A DNA stretch of 64,000 nucleotides. It comes from Providencia manganoxydans. Its GTDB lineage: Bacteria; Pseudomonadota; Gammaproteobacteria; Enterobacterales; Enterobacteriaceae. Numbering within the stretch: the first letter of the stretch is position 1; every line of letters starts with the position of its first letter. The notes beneath the pieces were generated by a model that was not told the DNA's origin, did no database searches, and saw nothing but the letters and a program-made list of their open reading frames with translations. The stretch lies in assembly GCF_016618195.1 (NCBI RefSeq), contig NZ_CP067099.1, positions 2,294,001 through 2,358,000 on the forward strand, given 5' to 3'. The translations under genes were made by a program, and so were the position numbers. Of this stretch, positions 1 through 7,477 are shown one piece after another.

Positions 1-3000
1 CTCTCGGTCCTGTTAGACGTGTAATTGCTTCCCATTCACGGCGGCTAGCTAACATTAATGTATCAATATTGAGAGTTAACGCTTGCTTATTATGCCGTTG
101 TAATTGATTTTGCAATTCAGCGAGTTGAGCAATCTGTTCTGTGACTTGATTATTATCTAAAGAAAGTACGGGTGATCGGGTTTCAATTTTATTTTTAGCC
201 GATAACAAAAAGGCATGTTTAACCGTATTGGCTAATTTACTTACCCAATGAGAAGAGTGATCAGCCTCAATCAACGGTCGTAACAAAGCCAATATTTGCC
301 AATTTGCTGGTGAAAAATGCGCGGTTTCAGCCCTAAATTTTTGAAATCGAGCTAGCTCAGGTAACGCTTTTTTTAACTGTTCAATAGCTGTCGCTAATGA
401 GTTCCCCGTCATAATAGCATCTTTAAATTGTTGCCAATAAGTTACTGTTAATACAGGTTTTAGCCTATCCAAAATAGCTAAGCTGTTTTGCCTTGCTTCC
501 GCTTTGTCGATAGCCGCTTCTACTTCGCGGCATTGCTGCATAAATCCAAGTCGTTGCAGTTGAACAATGGCCGATAAAAAATGTTCTGGTTGTGGATAAT
601 TTGCCAAAGTGGCCGCATTTTGTTCAACTTGTCGAAGCTGTTCAATTAGCGAGCTGAGGGTTTTCTGCCATAACTGTATCGCTGGATTTAGTGGCTCAAT
701 GTGTAATTGATGGAAGATAGGTAATAGTTCTTGATATAACAGGCGCCATTGTTGCTCGGTATTAATCGTTTTTAATAAACAATCAAACTTAATAACACTA
801 CTGTTCATTCCACTGGAAGCAACGAATTGAGCGAGTTTGTTTTTTCGACTGTAATAGAAAGGATTTAAAAAACGTAGAAATGAGCCGTGTAATTTCTCCG
901 AAATAGCACGTGACAGCTGAGATAATGTTAAATTATCCAATGATGCCAATAGCGAAAAATAATGAGATTCTGTTCCTGTGGTATCAATGCTGCTTAAGCG
1001 GTTATTTAGCTGTATTAATTGCTCTATCACCGTAGCACCAATGGTTTGTTTACCCTGCTCATTTAAAAACAAGGTTAGCCACTGCGAAAAGTCGTGCCAT
1101 TGATCGGGGGTCAATAAAGCAAACTGTTGTTTGCACTGCTGGTAAGTTGTTCGATGATCTAGCAATAGCTCTATATTTATTTGATGTTCAATGCCACTCT
1201 CAGTGCTTAAACGCTGAGTTTCTGCCGCGATAAACAATGGAAAAGTCTGCTCAAACAAGCGGTATTCTGGATCATCAAGGTTAAATTGCGCTATTCCATT
1301 CAATGGACTTTGCTCATAATTTAATGCAAACCAGTTAGGGGCATGAATATTAATATCATTGATAAATTGAGTGATACTGTTTTTGTTTTGTAAGACTAAA
1401 ACAGATTGTATTTGATCAATATCCAGCAAATAACGTTCGGCTTTATCAGCAACCAATAACCCTGATAATACCTCTTTATATGACAATTTTAATTGGTCAT
1501 CATCGGTATACATTGCCTGATAATATTCATCAAGCGTATTTTCACACTGTTCAAGTGTTTGATTAACTTGCCGACGTTGATTGCGCCAATCATCATCGTG
1601 TAACTCGGTTGCCAATTTAACCCATAATTGTTCAAGTTGTTCTCGAACTGCCTGAATAACTTCTCGTGATTTCTGATTTTGATTAATCATTAATACACGA
1701 TCTGCCAATCCACTAGCAACTAAGCGTTTATAAACCACCTCTAATGCAGCGGGCTTTTGACAGATAACTAATGCCGTTTTCTGACGACCAATAGCATCAG
1801 CAATTAAGTTGACAATCGTTTGGCTTTTCCCTGTTCCCGGAGGGCCTTCAATTAATAGTCCGGTTCCTTGGCGAGCAGCCTGTACTACCGCCTCCTGAGA
1901 CGGATCTGGCAGTGATAAAAAGTATTGGTCTTTAGTTTGTTCCTGTCGTGCCCCATCTATACTTTGTTGCTCATTGAGGTTGAGCATGGTGGCTAGTGCT
2001 GTTTGATTAATACTTTGTGAAGTAATTAATTGCAAATCACTGCTGATGGCTTGCCCAATAAATGAAGTATGGAACAACACCGCCGAGCAAATAATTTGTG
2101 CACTGTTTTCGGGTACATTTTCAGTAATAGAGGGTAATGGTGATAAATTAAATTCTCTCACGGGCAAAAGCCCATTGAGCATTGTCATTGTTTCTTCAAC
2201 ACTTAAGGCGGCTTGCGAAAGAATATTATCTAACGCGTCTTGCCATTCACTCACTGCGGGGATCCCAACAAAATTAGCCAGCGCTGGGTTAATGCGGACC
2301 GCTGCTCTATCATTATCAAAAGCGAGTTGGACAGGTCCTCGTTGTAATTCAGAAGATAAAATAGATACGGGCCATAAAAATAATGGCGCAATACGTGGTT
2401 TGATTTTATTGGGTTGGGTATTCAGGAGTAAAAATGGAAAACCTAAATACATGCCATTGATACCGGTGTCTCTTTGGTACAATTGCGTATCTGATTGCAA
2501 TGCCCACAAACGTGAATTAACGCCTTTACGCTGTAACAACAAATCACTATCAATCGTGATTGCACGGCTTTTCCGATTAATTAAATGCTCTAATAGCTTA
2601 TCAGCACCTTGGTGTGAGCTCGTGCACTCAGTAAGGTCAACCCGACCGGCTGTAGCCGTTAAACGCATACGGACAAGGTTACCACGTTGGGTAACAGAGG
2701 TGAGTTTTTGTGCGAAAAAGCCAAGAACTTCAAGGATATACTTCTGTGATTCTGGAACTTGCCATTGCTCAATTGGGACGGCTAACATCAGCAAAACCTG
2801 CGGGAGTGGCAAGCGACGCGTTAATAAAAAAGTGTCAGCCCACTGATCAATATCCATTACACCGAGTCGTTTAAAACCATCTAATCGTTCTGCTAATAAT
2901 TGAAATAGCTCATTACGTGGTAAAAGCAACTGCTGCTTAGCCACTTCATGGTCAAAATGGGCAATATCATATTGTGTAGCCAATTTAGCCGCATCACTTA

Positions 3001-4774
3001 TAATAGTGTCTACCGCTATAAACTGCCCAATATCAGCACTGAGTAGTAAAATATAATCATCTTCTTGTGGCTTTTGTTTACCAATGAGTACCCTTAAGCT
3101 GTCGTTATGTGTATCAGGGAATTGCTGATGAAAAATATCCCAACGCGCCATTAACTGGCTGGTAGAACTAATTAATAAATAGAGTTTTAAGCTTTCTTCA
3201 TTGAGTGGGATTTGCTGTTGTTCTGCGCGCAGGCGGATCCTACATTGACGATGAAAAAGTTGAACCAGCCAATGTTGCTCGTCTATCGCTTGAAGTTGAT
3301 TTGCTAATGGCTCACTAATTAATTGGTAACCCAACATTGGGTTGTCTAGTAGCCATGCTGGCGTGATAATTTCACCTTGAAAAACAAACGGAATATTTGG
3401 ATTCAAAATCCGTAGCGCTAAGGCCAATTTTAGGTCAGGAATAATTTCTGTATTATTCATTAAACGCTGTAATTGCCCTAATACACTGCCCATTTGGTCA
3501 AATTTACTTAACCATGACGTGATTTCTCCACGGGTTAACAAGTCAATCGCATCGTCCCAATGCGCTTGTTCCGCTGCAACCAACGCAAATGTTTCTGGAT
3601 GACTGAATTGGTATCCTGCGAATGACAAGTTATGTACTTGTTGCTGTATGTCGCTATTGAGCAATTCAGGAGCTTGGACAGGACGACCTTGTAACCAAGC
3701 TGAAACTTGAGGCCACTGCCAACGTGAAAAGCGATCTCTATTTAATAAACCACGTAATAAGAGTTGAGTACGGTCATCCAATTCACTAGGGAGCTCAATA
3801 CCATTCGTCATGACATGAATCAGAAATGCATTATCATGGATATGATCAAAACATTTTCCACGGGTTAATTGCTCCAGCAAAATAATCCCTAAGCTCCACC
3901 AATCTGATGCGGCGCAAACCCCTCCTGCTAAGGTTTCTGGAGCGGTATAACGTGAAATATCTAATGGTGAGACGATATCAAGATCAAATTCAGACAAGCT
4001 TGCTGAACCATATTCTATAATAACAATATCGAGTGGTTCACGACTGCGTATTAATAGGTTAGAAGGCCTTAAAGCACGATGACGTAATCCATGTTCAGCA
4101 AATGTGGCTAATGCAGTTCCCAGCTCTTCAACTAATTTAGGAATTTCATCAGGCCGCCAAAAATCCCCTTGTTGGATAAATTGGCTAAGTGAGCCACCGG
4201 TTAACTGTTCAGTGACATGCCATGCTCTATTTTCCCATCGCCCTGTTTCATAAAACTGTGGCACATGCTCAGTGGGAATGAGTTTGAGTACTTGGTAAAT
4301 CGCCGGATCAGGCTCTTCCCCCTTTTGGTACAGCGTTAATACACCAACTTGCCCTGTCAGCTTATTTGTGACAGTGTAACGCTCACGCGCGCTATCAATT
4401 TCATTAATACGTTGATCTAGACGCCAGTCATCTATATATCGGTGAGAAGTTATCTCTTGTTGCTGCTCGCGACTATCATTGGATAACGCTGCATCAGCAC
4501 CGCATTGTAGGCAAATAAGATCACTGGGGTCCATTGGATGACCATTGACGCAAACTATCGCGTCTGATGTCGATACATCGACAACCTTATCGCCCGCTGA
4601 AATGTGATCGCCGGTAACTTCGCTTTGCTGTAATGGCGGTTGCCAACTTTCATCCTGAATGGTTTCAAGAGTAAGATCCCAACCACAAGGTTGATGATTA
4701 ATTTGCCCCTCACAAAAAATCTCCGTTAATGGGCGTTTTGTCTGGCAATGAGGGCAAAAACGTATCATGGTCAT
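1..4774 (-). CDS. Zinc-ribbon/pseudokinase/SF1 helicase (DUF4011-like) giant protein, 3' end outside window
   Basis: I translated this reading frame by hand from the complementary strand; it is open for about 1591 codons and leaves the window at position 1. The N-terminus holds paired cysteines (C7/C10, then a CxxC near residue 86), a likely zinc ribbon. Residues about 110-330 form a protein-kinase fold with a conserved APE and a DWWSLG motif. The catalytic residues are missing, however: the VAIK lysine position reads VLT, HRD reads HRA and DFG reads EYG, so it should be a pseudokinase. Near residue 975 a Walker A (GPPGTGKSQT) follows a Q-motif-like PSQEAV, as in Upf1/Dna2-like DUF4011 helicases. 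A long helical region comes next; helicase motifs II-VI must lie outside the window. The ATG at 4774 lies 17 nt after the radical SAM gene, so it is the third gene of an operon. An ATG at 4768 is an alternative start. The function is unknown; a defence role is only inference. Confidence 0.85.
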   Translation of the reverse strand, partial: MTMIRFCPHCQTKRPLTEIFCEGQINHQPCGWDLTLETIQDESWQPPLQQSEVTGDHISAGDKVVDVSTSDAIVCVNGHPMDPSDLICLQCGADAALSNDSREQQQEITSHRYIDDWRLDQRINEIDSARERYTVTNKLTGQVGVLTLYQKGEEPDPAIYQVLKLIPTEHVPQFYETGRWENRAWHVTEQLTGGSLSQFIQQGDFWRPDEIPKLVEELGTALATFAEHGLRHRALRPSNLLIRSREPLDIVIIEYGSASLSEFDLDIVSPLDISRYTAPETLAGGVCAASDWWSLGIILLEQLTRGKCFDHIHDNAFLIHVMTNGIELPSELDDRTQLLLRGLLNRDRFSRWQWPQVSAWLQGRPVQAPELLNSDIQQQVHNLSFAGYQFSHPETFALVAAEQAHWDDAIDLLTRGEITSWLSKFDQMGSVLGQLQRLMNNTEIIPDLKLALALRILNPNIPFVFQGEIITPAWLLDNPMLGYQLISEPLANQLQAIDEQHWLVQLFHRQCRIRLRAEQQQIPLNEESLKLYLLISSTSQLMARWDIFHQQFPDTHNDSLRVLIGKQKPQEDDYILLLSADIGQFIAVDTIISDAAKLATQYDIAHFDHEVAKQQLLLPRNELFQLLAERLDGFKRLGVMDIDQWADTFLLTRRLPLPQVLLMLAVPIEQWQVPESQKYILEVLGFFAQKLTSVTQRGNLVRMRLTATAGRVDLTECTSSHQGADKLLEHLINRKSRAITIDSDLLLQRKGVNSRLWALQSDTQLYQRDTGINGMYLGFPFLLLNTQPNKIKPRIAPLFLWPVSILSSELQRGPVQLAFDNDRAAVRINPALANFVGIPAVSEWQDALDNILSQAALSVEETMTMLNGLLPVREFNLSPLPSITENVPENSAQIICSAVLFHTSFIGQAISSDLQLITSQSINQTALATMLNLNEQQSIDGARQEQTKDQYFLSLPDPSQEAVVQAARQGTGLLIEGPPGTGKSQTIVNLIADAIGRQKTALVICQKPAALEVVYKRLVASGLADRVLMINQNQKSREVIQAVREQLEQLWVKLATELHDDDWRNQRRQVNQTLEQCENTLDEYYQAMYTDDDQLKLSYKEVLSGLLVADKAERYLLDIDQIQSVLVLQNKNSITQFINDINIHAPNWFALNYEQSPLNGIAQFNLDDPEYRLFEQTFPLFIAAETQRLSTESGIEHQINIELLLDHRTTYQQCKQQFALLTPDQWHDFSQWLTLFLNEQGKQTIGATVIEQLIQLNNRLSSIDTTGTESHYFSLLASLDNLTLSQLSRAISEKLHGSFLRFLNPFYYSRKNKLAQFVASSGMNSSVIKFDCLLKTINTEQQWRLLYQELLPIFHQLHIEPLNPAIQLWQKTLSSLIEQLRQVEQNAATLANYPQPEHFLSAIVQLQRLGFMQQCREVEAAIDKAEARQNSLAILDRLKPVLTVTYWQQFKDAIMTGNSLATAIEQLKKALPELARFQKFRAETAHFSPANWQILALLRPLIEADHSSHWVSKLANTVKHAFLLSAKNKIETRSPVLSLDNNQVTEQIAQLAELQNQLQRHNKQALTLNIDTLMLASRREWEAITRLTGPR

Positions 4775-4791
4775 CCGCTATTCCGATCCAC

Positions 4792-5424
4792 TTATTTTTT
4801 AAGTTGTTTTAAAGGTTGTTCTTTTTGTTCAAGCCATGATTGTAAATAGGACATGTCATGGCGCTGGGGGATCCCCAGTAAAAAAATACGACCTGTTTCA
4901 TCTACGGCGAGATCAAGCGCTTTATGAGAATCTATTAACTGAGTATCGTATTGAGAGAAACGTTGTTTTCCCAATGATGTGAGACAATGCAACTGTTGGT
5001 TATCACTTCCTCTCAATGCCAATGTTTGTGGCGCGCTTTCTTGATATGGTCCTGTGATTAACGCATCAATCAACCCATTCATATCTAAAATGTCTTGATG
5101 AATATCATCCCATTCATAACCGCTATAAACTAAAATGTCACCCTGAAAATCTTGCCGTAGTTCTGTTAATAAACATTGCAAAGCATCTCGTTGCTCAAAT
5201 GGTTCTCCACCTGAAATGGTGATCCCATCCGCCTCTTGTAACCATGGTTTTAATTGCTGCATCAAAACCGTAATATCAATACCATTTTCTCGCCGATGCC
5301 AAGTGTCCGGTGACATACATCCTTTGCAATGTATAGAGCAGCCTTGAACCCATAAGCCAATACGTTGACCGGGCCCCAAAGTCGTGACAGGAAAATGAAC
5401 TCGTGAAAGACTGATTTTTGTCAT
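4792..5424 (-). CDS. NrdG-like radical SAM (4Fe-4S single-cluster) activase-type protein
   Basis: The 210-residue protein carries the radical SAM cluster motif at C29, C33 and C36 (VQGCSIHCKGC) and the SAM-binding GGEP at 72-75. Both match the compact activating-enzyme family that includes anaerobic ribonucleotide reductase activase NrdG. It is longer than NrdG (about 154 residues) and has an extra C-terminal helix-rich tail. No glycyl-radical enzyme lies nearby; instead it sits 6 nt downstream of a Clp-like AAA+ gene and 17 nt upstream of a pseudokinase-helicase gene. By family it should cleave SAM to a 5'-deoxyadenosyl radical. Its target is unknown and may be one of its operon partners. 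The fold assignment is firm and the function is open. Confidence 0.88.
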   Translation of the reverse strand: MTKISLSRVHFPVTTLGPGQRIGLWVQGCSIHCKGCMSPDTWHRRENGIDITVLMQQLKPWLQEADGITISGGEPFEQRDALQCLLTELRQDFQGDILVYSGYEWDDIHQDILDMNGLIDALITGPYQESAPQTLALRGSDNQQLHCLTSLGKQRFSQYDTQLIDSHKALDLAVDETGRIFLLGIPQRHDMSYLQSWLEQKEQPLKQLKK

Positions 5425-5430
5425 TTATTA

Positions 5431-7266
5431 TTACGCCATCGGTTGCAGTAATATACGCGTTGATTCACCTATCTCTATATCTGTTATTTGATAAGCGCTA
5501 TTCTCCACCAATTCGCTGTCAAAAATGGCTCGTGATAATGGATTAATTAAATATGCTTCTAATTGATTGCGTATACCGCGCCCACCATTCGATAAATCAG
5601 CTAAACAACGTGTTTTTAGTCTCTCTTTTGCCTGTTGGGAAATAACAATGTTTAATGACTGTTTTTCCAGATCTAATAGAATGTTATCAACCATTTGTTC
5701 AAAGATTTGCTCTGCCACATCTGGGCGAATAAAATCAAAAACAATGATATTTTCACCGATACGGTTTAATAATTCAGGCCGGTTAAGCACTAATTTGAAA
5801 TGTCGCTCAATCTCATTTTTTACATTGCGAGTCACTGTTTCAAATGGTTCATGGGGTTGCACATTAGCAACGCGTTCCCCATTAGCATCTAAACGATAAA
5901 TACCGAGGTTGGAAGTAAAGATGATCAGAGATTCAGAGAAATAAACGCGATCTCCCCGCCCTGAAGTTAAAACACCATCATCAATAATTTGTAAAAACTT
6001 ATCCATTAGGTGAGGATGTGCCTTTTCAATCTCATCAAATAGCACAACACTAAAAGGTTTTTCTCTGATGGCATTGGTTAATTCGCCACCTGAATCATAG
6101 CCTACGTAACCAGGAGGAGCACCAATCAAACGTTGATCTGCATGTTCGGCACTAAACTCTGACATATCAAAACGAATATAAGCACTCTCATCGCCAAATA
6201 GCAGTTGAGTTACTGTTTTGGCTAATTCCGTTTTACCAACACCAGTTGGTCCCGCCAAAAAGACAACCCCTCTAGGACGGCCGCCTTTATGACCACCAAC
6301 CCCTGTCATCGCGCGTTTGATAATATCGAGTAAATGGGTGACTGCATGCTGTTGCCCTTTAACCCTGCGTTGGATCATTTGTGGTGCATGACGAATTTTT
6401 TGTTTATCGATTTTTTTCCATGGATCTTCGGTAATACCTACTTTATAGCGACGTACAGCATCACTAATACGCACAGCGTCAACTTGCTCAATGCGCGCAA
6501 GCTGAATGATCGCAGTTAAATCAAGTAGCAGTAGACCTTCAGTTTCATCGATAAAATCATTAAGTAAACGCTGTTTTTCGCTTTCCTCTATATCGCTAAA
6601 GTTTGCTAGCGAAGACAATAAACTTGGCGCGAGTTGTCGGCGAACTTGGCTATCTGGCTTAGCCACCGAAATAGCGCGCACTCGTGGATTGTTGACTAAG
6701 AACCAATCAGGTAAATCCGTTTCCTTTTCCACAATCCAAAATAAGCTATTAAAATAAGGTTGATTTTTTTCGCCTGCTGGACGTGCTTTTGCTTGATGGG
6801 ATACCACTAAAGCTCGAGTAAATAAACTGTGCTCTGCTGGCGTCAAATTAGCGCGGTGGGAAATTAAACATGAGGCGAAATCAATGCAAAGTGCTATCGG
6901 CTGTTCAGTACAATTTACCCATTTATCCAGCACTTGATTGAGGATATCTATTCCTCCTGCGGAATACCCTTCAGTGGGTGTTAACCCCAGTTTTTGCATG
7001 AGTGCCATCCCTGCCTCAACCTGTTTGGCTGGGTTAGCCACCCATTGGAACCCCAATAAAGGGGTATAGGTAATAATATGTGCGTAGCCAGCCTCAAATA
7101 AACTATTAAATAAGGATTGATTAAACGGTAATGGTGTCACCACATTAGGAGCAACTTCGCTTGCCTGAAGATCACGAACGTTGCCAAATAATACAAATTG
7201 GCTTTTTAATGGTATAAATCTCAGTAAATCGCGTAACCAACGTGGTTTTTGAAAAGCAGTTTCCAT
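5431..7266 (-). CDS. Two-domain Clp/Hsp100-like AAA+ ATPase, first gene of the pseudokinase-radical SAM operon
   Basis: The 611-residue protein has a complete C-terminal Clp-type AAA+ module: Walker A GPTGVGKT (339-346), pore-loop-like GYVGY (about 387), Walker B VVLFDEIEKAH (407-417), sensor 1 TSN (451), arginine finger in RPELLNRI (496-503) and sensor 2 in GGRGIRNQLE (561-570). The first 290 residues look like a second AAA domain that has lost its Walker A; only a Walker-B-like strand (IALCIDFAS, about 124-132) can be seen. A good ribosome site (AAGGA) precedes the ATG at 7266. Members of this family thread or remodel proteins, so it may act on the radical SAM protein or the helicase encoded next. 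There is no ClpP-binding IGF/L loop that I recognise, so it may be a remodeller and not part of a protease. Confidence 0.88.
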   Translation of the reverse strand: METAFQKPRWLRDLLRFIPLKSQFVLFGNVRDLQASEVAPNVVTPLPFNQSLFNSLFEAGYAHIITYTPLLGFQWVANPAKQVEAGMALMQKLGLTPTEGYSAGGIDILNQVLDKWVNCTEQPIALCIDFASCLISHRANLTPAEHSLFTRALVVSHQAKARPAGEKNQPYFNSLFWIVEKETDLPDWFLVNNPRVRAISVAKPDSQVRRQLAPSLLSSLANFSDIEESEKQRLLNDFIDETEGLLLLDLTAIIQLARIEQVDAVRISDAVRRYKVGITEDPWKKIDKQKIRHAPQMIQRRVKGQQHAVTHLLDIIKRAMTGVGGHKGGRPRGVVFLAGPTGVGKTELAKTVTQLLFGDESAYIRFDMSEFSAEHADQRLIGAPPGYVGYDSGGELTNAIREKPFSVVLFDEIEKAHPHLMDKFLQIIDDGVLTSGRGDRVYFSESLIIFTSNLGIYRLDANGERVANVQPHEPFETVTRNVKNEIERHFKLVLNRPELLNRIGENIIVFDFIRPDVAEQIFEQMVDNILLDLEKQSLNIVISQQAKERLKTRCLADLSNGGRGIRNQLEAYLINPLSRAIFDSELVENSAYQITDIEIGESTRILLQPMA

Positions 7267-7477
7267 GACATCCTTTACCTTACATGAGCATTTTATTCAA
7301 GTTTACCGTAAATGTTCGATAAATAGCGCATTTATCTATAACAACAACCAATAATCTGAACATTCTCATTACATTTGGTTATTCATTCATCTTTGTGTTT
7401 AATATTTCTATATTCCATTGTAATTTATAAGCAATCAATCGCCTTAATTTACCCTAATATTGAATAAGTGAGCCGAG

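What the first reader, a model, noticed from the sequence alone, without database searches (positions are those of the whole stretch)
1..7266. Candidate undescribed three-gene system: Clp-like AAA+ ATPase, radical SAM protein, pseudokinase-helicase
Three genes are packed with gaps of 6 and 17 bases: a two-domain AAA+ remodeller with one degenerate domain, an NrdG-like radical SAM enzyme with no glycyl-radical target nearby, and a giant zinc-ribbon/kinase-like/SF1 helicase. I know of no named system with this trio. The kinase-helicase fusion recalls MkoA of the Mokosh defence system and some TerY-P cassettes, but radical SAM and Clp-type partners are not part of those. Radical chemistry joined to protein remodelling and nucleic-acid helicase work could mean a defence or a nucleotide-modifying function.
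Basis: partly seen in the sequence, partly recalled or inferred. Interest (0 to 1): 0.85.

Follow-up and report, generated by a model that had tools for sequence, protein, structure and literature searches.

The report
Radical-enzyme, protein-motor, helicase-nuclease operon
Bacteria from Providencia to Flavobacteria keep the same four neighbouring genes (a ring-type protein motor, a radical enzyme, a giant helicase with a degenerate kinase and a nuclease domain, and a coiled-coil partner), which likely form a switch that attacks foreign or damaged nucleic acid and in which the radical enzyme is predicted to act on a new kind of target, because 8 of 12 carrier genomes tested have none of the known targets searched for.

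Summary
The trio is part of a four-gene operon (gaps 6, 17, 7 bases): a Clp-like AAA+ protein with a dead first ring, an NrdG-type radical SAM enzyme, a 2,079-aa zinc-ribbon/pseudokinase/DUF4011/SF1 helicase/MTES_1575 nuclease, and a 453-aa coiled-coil protein left of the window. All four occur in the same order in 57 of 61 loci found with the AAA+ N-terminus, in alpha-, beta- and gamma-proteobacteria and Flavobacteriaceae, and diverge together (r 0.90-0.97). Variants pair the AAA+/radical SAM core with other partners. Eight of 11 other carrier genomes tested match neither glycyl-radical-enzyme model, so the radical enzyme probably has an undescribed target. Anti-phage defence is plausible, not shown: the helicase half resembles the candidate PDC-S37 and, below cut-off, ProA and Hhe; few flanking genes match defence models; the AAA+ tree largely follows taxonomy; a viral-contig scan found none. 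My paper searches found no description of the operon; one paper notes a conserved DUF4011/radical SAM pair beside a Pseudomonas aeruginosa defence hotspot. The mechanism is inferred.

The parts
5431..7266 (-). Gene 1, 611-aa two-domain Clp-like AAA+ protein: dead D1 (aa 7-279, window 6430-7248), active-type D2 (AAA_2 aa 331-504, window 5755-6276; Walker A GPTGVGKT, DEIEK, pore motif PPGYVG)
4792..5424 (-). Gene 2, 210-aa NrdG-type radical SAM enzyme (CSIHCKGC cluster motif at 5317-5340, GGE, RGSDNQ)
1..4774 (-). Gene 3 (part; continues left to genome 2292535, 2,079 aa in all): zinc ribbons, pseudokinase (aa 161-357, window 3704-4294), DUF4011 part (aa 746-834, window 2273-2539), SF1 helicase start (AAA_11 aa 958-1082, window 1529-1903); AAA_12 (aa 1717-1909) and MTES_1575 nuclease (aa 1975-2071) lie outside the window
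7354..7368 (-). TGAGAATGTTCAGAT element about 90-105 bases before gene 1, identical in the 10 Providencia-genus rows of an 11-row upstream alignment; possible promoter or operator part

Best explanation
A conserved four-gene operon encodes a Clp-like AAA+ protein with a dead first ring, an NrdG-type radical SAM enzyme, a zinc-ribbon/pseudokinase/helicase/nuclease and a coiled-coil protein, and it likely works as a guarded nucleic-acid-attack switch in which the radical enzyme is predicted to modify a partner protein and the AAA+ motor would then arm the helicase-nuclease. Shown by sequence: gene content, order, co-divergence, conserved catalytic motifs of D2, radical SAM, helicase and nuclease, loss of the kinase and D1 nucleotide motifs, and no match to two glycyl-radical-enzyme models in 8 of 11 other carriers tested. 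Inferred steps: (1) the zinc ribbons and pseudokinase of gene 3 act as a ligand- or protein-sensing lid that holds the helicase-nuclease off; (2) the radical SAM enzyme abstracts a hydrogen from a partner, most likely the coiled-coil protein, whose C-terminal domain has invariant residues (G334, Y335, G362, E364, Q373, D388, C396, G422), making a redox- or infection-sensitive mark; (3) the D2 ring, using the inactive D1 as a docking ring, threads or remodels the marked partner and releases the lid; (4) the SF1 helicase translocates on nucleic acid and the nuclease domain cuts it. The same AAA+/radical SAM core with other helicases, a PIN nuclease or kinase/FHA sets suggests a reusable control core with exchangeable effectors.
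For: Same four genes in order in 57 of 61 loci and in the window genome plus 12 of 13 relatives with a radical SAM match; pairwise distances correlate at r 0.90-0.97, 0 of 999 permutations as high for each of six pairs. Radical SAM cysteines and GGE 60 of 60 rows, GSDNQ 59-60 of 60. Helicase Walker A and DEAS residues 60-61 of 61; nuclease D2002 and E2018 60 of 60 and D2020 58 of 60 rows with a residue. Kinase beta-3 Lys absent, DFG Asp in 7 of 61. No Walker A in D1 in 62 of 62, and likewise in nine variant AAA+ proteins, whose D2 and pore motifs are kept. Variants: helicase-PIN-hypothetical-AAA+-radical SAM on five plasmids (Pfam run on L094 and one more PIN protein); DUF4011 protein-kinase-FHA-radical SAM-AAA+-PP2C-like on a Clostridia plasmid; radical SAM, FHA/zinc ribbon (by eye), kinase-WD40, AAA+ and coiled coil in a gammaproteobacterium. 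Neither NRDD nor Gly_radical in 8 of 11 other carriers. Gene 3 helicase half resembles PADLOC candidate PDC-S37 (E 1.4e-148) and NCBIfam antiphage_ProA (494 bits).
Against: No activity, interaction or target is shown. Defence context is weak for the chromosomal type: six PADLOC models match 1-3 each of 106 flanking ORFs at E<=1e-15, three of those models being related RtcR-type ones; no matched control was run. The AAA+ tree mostly follows taxonomy, which also by itself explains much of the co-divergence; none found in IMG/VR. A paper reports that a DUF4011 gene beside a radical SAM gene is in every P. aeruginosa isolate (PMC10250203, passages), unlike a typical mobile defence system. The type I coiled-coil protein and the type II hypothetical are not shown homologous (hhalign E 0.076 and 0.047). 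Near three AAA+ relatives no radical SAM gene was detected: G176 (20 kb read), G290 and G175 (short contigs).
Confidence: 0.4

Rival explanations
1. A chromosomal stress-response or nucleic-acid repair machine, not immunity: the AAA+ motor and helicase-nuclease would clear stalled or damaged nucleoprotein, with the radical SAM cluster sensing redox state.
For: AAA+ tree clusters mostly by family and phylum; the flanking families shown (25 of 90) are largely metabolic and transport genes; operon GC near that of its surroundings (0.409 vs 0.389); DUF4011/radical SAM pair reported as core in P. aeruginosa (PMC10250203, passages; same operon not verified); not found on viral contigs.
Against: Patchy presence: 12 of 24 in the genus, 1 of 12 in the rest of the family, none in 24 further genomes of the order; 5 of 368 other genomes of the class have a strong AAA+ match; varied genomic neighbours inside one genus; some integrase and transposase families in the flanks (rve 3, Phage_integrase 2 of 106); plasmid-borne relatives.
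Confidence: 0.3
2. An accessory glycyl-radical-enzyme activase: the radical SAM enzyme would activate NrdD or pyruvate formate-lyase, helped by the AAA+ motor.
For: Closest named family is NrdG and the RGSxNQ motif is shared with the genome's own NrdG but not with a third homologue (L142); the window genome has NrdD and other glycyl-radical domains, and 3 of 11 other carriers have NrdD.
Against: 8 of 11 other carriers match neither NRDD nor Gly_radical; the window genome already has an NrdG beside its NrdD; no such enzyme in the operon by Pfam.
Confidence: 0.06
3. A viperin-like producer of modified nucleotides serving as an antiviral small molecule.
For: Weak pVip match of one type II radical SAM protein (L094, E 5.6e-6).
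Against: Window protein matches pVip only at E 0.034 and is far closer to NrdG.
Confidence: 0.06
4. Chance neighbours or annotation artefact.
For: None found.
Against: Fixed order in 57 of 61 loci across two phyla and co-divergence.
Confidence: 0.01

Closest known systems
PDC-S37 / antiphage_ProA / Hhe (large SF1 helicase-nucleases; PADLOC candidate and NCBIfam anti-phage proteins)
   Same: Helicase and nuclease half of gene 3 (PDC-S37 495 bits, ProA 494, Hhe 310)
   Different: Far below ProA and Hhe cut-offs (1500, 2000); pseudokinase and zinc ribbons in front; three conserved partner genes
Mokosh (MkoA)
   Same: Kinase-like plus SF1 helicase in one protein (recalled); helicase part matches MkoA at 142.7 bits
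   Different: Pseudokinase; nuclease is MTES_1575; AAA+, radical SAM and coiled-coil partners. The helicase of the PIN-type plasmid variant L094 is more MkoA-like (340.5 bits)
NrdG (class III ribonucleotide reductase activase)
   Same: Fer4_12, CX3CX2C, RGSxNQ
   Different: 97.6 bits against a cut-off of 126.1; 210 aa against a 154-position model; 8 of 11 other carriers tested have no NrdD match
ClpB/ClpC unfoldases
   Same: D2 ring with ClpB/ClpC homology and pore motif
   Different: D1 lacks Walker A and models as a p97-type AAA fold; far under the Clp cut-offs
vWA-AAA+ ternary conflict systems with a radical SAM component (Kaur et al. 2020, PMC7159879, passages)
   Same: AAA+ core, radical SAM said to modify a peptide effector, kinase domains mostly with disrupted catalytic residues
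   Different: No vWA by Pfam here; AAA+ is Clp-like, not MoxR/FtsH; helicase-nuclease effector
TerY-P cassettes
   Same: Zinc ribbons with kinase-like domain (recalled); the Clostridia variant has kinases, FHA and a PP2C-like protein
   Different: No vWA or PP2C in the four proteins

Membership tests
ProA/Hhe single-protein anti-phage helicases | whole-protein score over the NCBIfam cut-off | tested here: not met
   ProA 494 vs 1500, Hhe 310 vs 2000
PDC-S37 | match over the whole profile | tested here: inconclusive
   495 bits; best stretch aa 944-2075 covers profile 282-1342 of 1550; PADLOC prints no cut-off
Mokosh | PLD nuclease domain (recalled) | tested here: not met
   Pfam finds MTES_1575 and no PLD in the four proteins
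Mokosh | kinase with catalytic residues fused to the helicase (recalled) | tested here: not met
   beta-3 Lys lost, DFG Asp in 7 of 61; best of three MkoA stretches is the helicase, aa 1631-1910, the other two not shown
TerY-P | vWA and PP2C partners (recalled) | tested here: not met
   none by Pfam in the four proteins; adjacent ORFs judged by eye only
NrdG equivalog | score over TIGR02491 cut-off | tested here: not met
   97.6-98.3 vs 126.1 bits
NrdG equivalog | cluster motif and RGSxNQ | tested here: met
   (compared with the genome's own NrdG, L140)
Activase of known glycyl-radical enzymes | a glycyl-radical enzyme in the same genome | tested here: not met
   no NRDD or Gly_radical match in 8 of 11 other carriers; present in the window genome and 3 others
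vWA-AAA+ ternary conflict systems | vWA protein | tested here: not met
   no vWA by Pfam in the four proteins
ClpB/ClpC | two nucleotide-binding rings | tested here: not met
   0 of 62 have a Walker A pattern in the first 250 aa
Viperin (pVip) | clear pVip match | tested here: not met
   E 0.034
Anti-phage defence system | protection from phage or plasmid | not testable with these tools
   needs experiment
Anti-phage defence system | location in defence islands | tested here: inconclusive
   six PADLOC models, 1-3 members each, in 106 flanking ORFs, no matched control; two plasmid variants lie near restriction or antirestriction genes

The most novel reading that the evidence does not exclude
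A new class of immune or conflict system built on a reusable core of an NrdG-class radical activase and a half-dead Clp-like unfoldase: the activase installs a radical-derived mark on a protein that is not a glycyl-radical enzyme, and the unfoldase reads it to fire exchangeable nucleic-acid effectors (REase-helicase, PIN-helicase, kinase sets). It would be, to my knowledge, the first NrdG-family enzyme with a target outside the glycyl-radical enzymes.
Probability: 0.28. Interest if true: 0.93.

Novelty: new variant of a known kind. Interest (0 to 1): 0.76.

Why it matters
If true, radical chemistry of the ribonucleotide-reductase-activase type has been recruited to control a helicase-nuclease through a protein-remodelling ring, a control logic I found in no described system. 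It makes a sharp question testable at once: what does an NrdG-type enzyme act on in bacteria that show no known glycyl-radical enzyme? If the P. aeruginosa DUF4011/radical SAM pair proves to be this operon, it would also give a function to the large core gene that a published study used to mark a defence hotspot.

Tried and rejected
Defence-island enrichment: 161 upstream ORFs chosen by script (up to three per locus, four loci left out), 106 of them given to the family scans to fit limits and avoid near duplicates; PADLOC: three related RtcR-type models match 3 members each and three other models one each; Pfam: 25 of 90 families shown, largely metabolic, with a few sigma-54, integrase and transposase families. 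Not counted as support. Viral carriage: 147 pattern matches in IMG/VR, 0 relatives. E. coli: no match at DNA level with 2,967 bases. Ycf35/DUF1257 and DUF2997 kinship of the coiled-coil protein and of the L032 small protein: noticed by eye, but DUF2997 E 0.05 in 1 of 22 and DUF1257 E 0.1 in one; rejected as unproven. Type I coiled-coil versus type II hypothetical: no significant profile match. PDB fold for the coiled-coil model: 0 matches at E<=0.001; no proof of a new fold. Clean empty site: the RND-type permease neighbour was found in 6 of 12 non-carriers and its flank read in five, where the operon is absent, but the other flank differs, so no empty site was found. P. aeruginosa operon: could not be read here; in G584 I saw no hotspot translation genes by eye in the 12 kb listed. 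PA2725-PA2728 as its tags is my recall; PA2727/PA2728 appear in mutation tables of PMC4918941 (passages). A regulon for the upstream 15-mer: one exact copy in the genome; at up to two mismatches 10 sites against 3 for the control pattern, contexts not studied.

Literature: I saw no description of the operon in searches of open PMC papers; two listings were capped (10 of 496, 12 of 138), and subscription papers and most preprints are not covered. PMC10853773, PMC12629846 and PMC13356809 were seen as passages only and did not describe it.
Full report
Where it is. The window is G000:C1:2294001-2358000 of a one-contig 4.34-Mb genome; the nearest named relatives of its AAA+ protein are Providencia. 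Gene 1 (window 7266-5431), gene 2 (5424-4792) and gene 3 (4774 leftwards) lie on the minus strand with gaps of 6 and 17 bases; reading on to the left, gene 3 ends at 2,079 aa and a fourth gene of 453 aa follows after 7 bases. Beyond it lies a 1,028-aa gene on the other strand (RND permease by eye), so the operon ends there. That the four are one transcript is inferred from spacing and conservation.

Conservation. Radical SAM search: 14 of 60 genomes match, 13 of them (own, 11 more of the genus, 1 of the family) with the four genes; the fourteenth (G057, L032) is another locus. Genus 12 of 24, rest of the family 1 of 12, further order members 0 of 24. In L022 gene 3 is split in two frames. A scan of the named genome collection with the AAA+ N-terminus gave 61 loci (two peptide patterns seed the scan, so distant copies are missed). 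All four genes in order: 57 of 61 (L078's fourth gene is cut by the end of the stretch; the radical SAM profile used there carries a spurious extension from one long frame and was read from its radical SAM part). The four others: L049 and L083 end with the contig, L077 has a broken AAA+ gene without partners, L093 only a fragment. Rows used for motif counts are those with over 75% profile coverage, duplicates and the split L022 gene left out (AAA+ 62, radical SAM 60, gene 3 61, gene 4 56). Distances between the families correlate at r 0.90-0.97 over 53-60 loci. The AAA+ tree (62 rows) puts Flavobacteriaceae on one side (100/100) and groups Enterobacterales, Pseudomonas, most Burkholderiaceae and the alphaproteobacteria (one of these weakly), with strays such as two separate Azoarcus rows. 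So: old, co-inherited, often absent, and found in different neighbourhoods even within one genus; recent transfer is not shown.

Variants. On plasmids the AAA+/radical SAM pair follows an SF1 helicase, a PIN protein and a hypothetical (five loci read: L094, L095, L099, L100, L102; Pfam on L094 and the L099 PIN). In Aristaeella (L098) it sits with a PDC-S37-type DUF4011 protein (1308 bits), two kinases, an FHA/zinc-ribbon protein and a PP2C-like protein (under the Pfam cut-off). In G257 (L110) radical SAM, FHA/zinc ribbon (by eye), kinase-WD40, AAA+ and a coiled-coil protein starting MSGPK share about 11 kb, with other ORFs between. A cyanobacterial plasmid (L101) has both genes about 9 kb apart. 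Against this, L111, L112 and L113 show the AAA+ gene without a detected radical SAM gene. In all nine variant radical SAM proteins tested the cluster motif and GSxNQ are present, and in all nine variant AAA+ proteins only D2 has a Walker A.

Target. The window genome has its own NrdG next to NrdD and three Gly_radical matches, one of them in NrdD. Of 11 other carriers, three have an NRDD match and none a Gly_radical match; eight have neither (Aquimarina, Nonlabens, P. spelaei, Paraburkholderia, Rhizobium, Pandoraea, Luteimonas, a Moraxellaceae MAG). Caveats: Gly_radical did not ring on the three NrdD of the other carriers, so it misses some; completeness of these genomes is not told and the MAG may be incomplete; E. 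coli rang in both control sets. This makes a known glycyl-radical enzyme an unlikely general target and is the strongest new fact here.

Defence or not. For: kinship of gene 3 to anti-phage candidates, two plasmid variants beside restriction or antirestriction genes, patchy presence, some mobile-element families in the flanks. Against: few defence models in the flanks, tree, viral scan, and the report that a DUF4011/radical SAM pair is core in P. aeruginosa beside hotspot cDHS1 (PMC10250203, passages only; identity with this operon not verified). I therefore commit to a nucleic-acid-attack switch with moderate confidence and keep the repair reading as main rival.

Compared with the known. Closest in logic are the vWA-AAA+ ternary systems of Kaur et al. 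(PMC7159879, passages), which include a radical SAM component and mostly disrupted kinases, but no vWA protein is found here. Defining features of Mokosh, TerY-P, NrdG, ClpB, viperin and ProA/Hhe were tested and not met as listed. Hence a new variant by kind, with the bolder reading kept in the novel case.

Noticed in passing
window 7354-7368; upstream regions of L020-L028, L033, L036, L038, L039: A 15-base element TGAGAATGTTCAGAT is identical about 90-105 bases before gene 1 in the 10 Providencia-genus rows aligned and occurs exactly once in the window genome; the other loci checked, Proteus and Xenorhabdus included, have 4 or more mismatches.
   Followed up: partly
L032:175-8835: A different locus with an MkoA-like helicase, two large unknown proteins, a small protein that by eye resembles Ycf35/DUF1257 (Pfam E 0.1), and an RGSDNQ radical SAM protein; the AAA+ gene was not seen in the stretch.
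   Followed up: partly
L098:822-18684: Clostridia plasmid cluster uniting a PDC-S37-type DUF4011 protein with radical SAM, AAA+, FHA, PP2C-like and two kinase genes: a much larger phospho-signalling version.
   Followed up: partly
L095:1-22969: The PIN-type variant lies on an Acinetobacter plasmid named pNDM1_010055, followed by an AAA/radical SAM/hypothetical gene trio.
   Followed up: no
L034, L075, L081 (gene 3); L046, L054 (gene 4): Gene 3 or gene 4 matches fall in two frames in these loci, while gene 1 is in one frame in the 57 complete loci; pseudogenes and sequencing errors not told apart.
   Followed up: no
L078:12447-14089: About 1.6 kb with extra ORFs (119 and 321 aa) lies between genes 2 and 3 in an Azoarcus MAG.
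   Followed up: no
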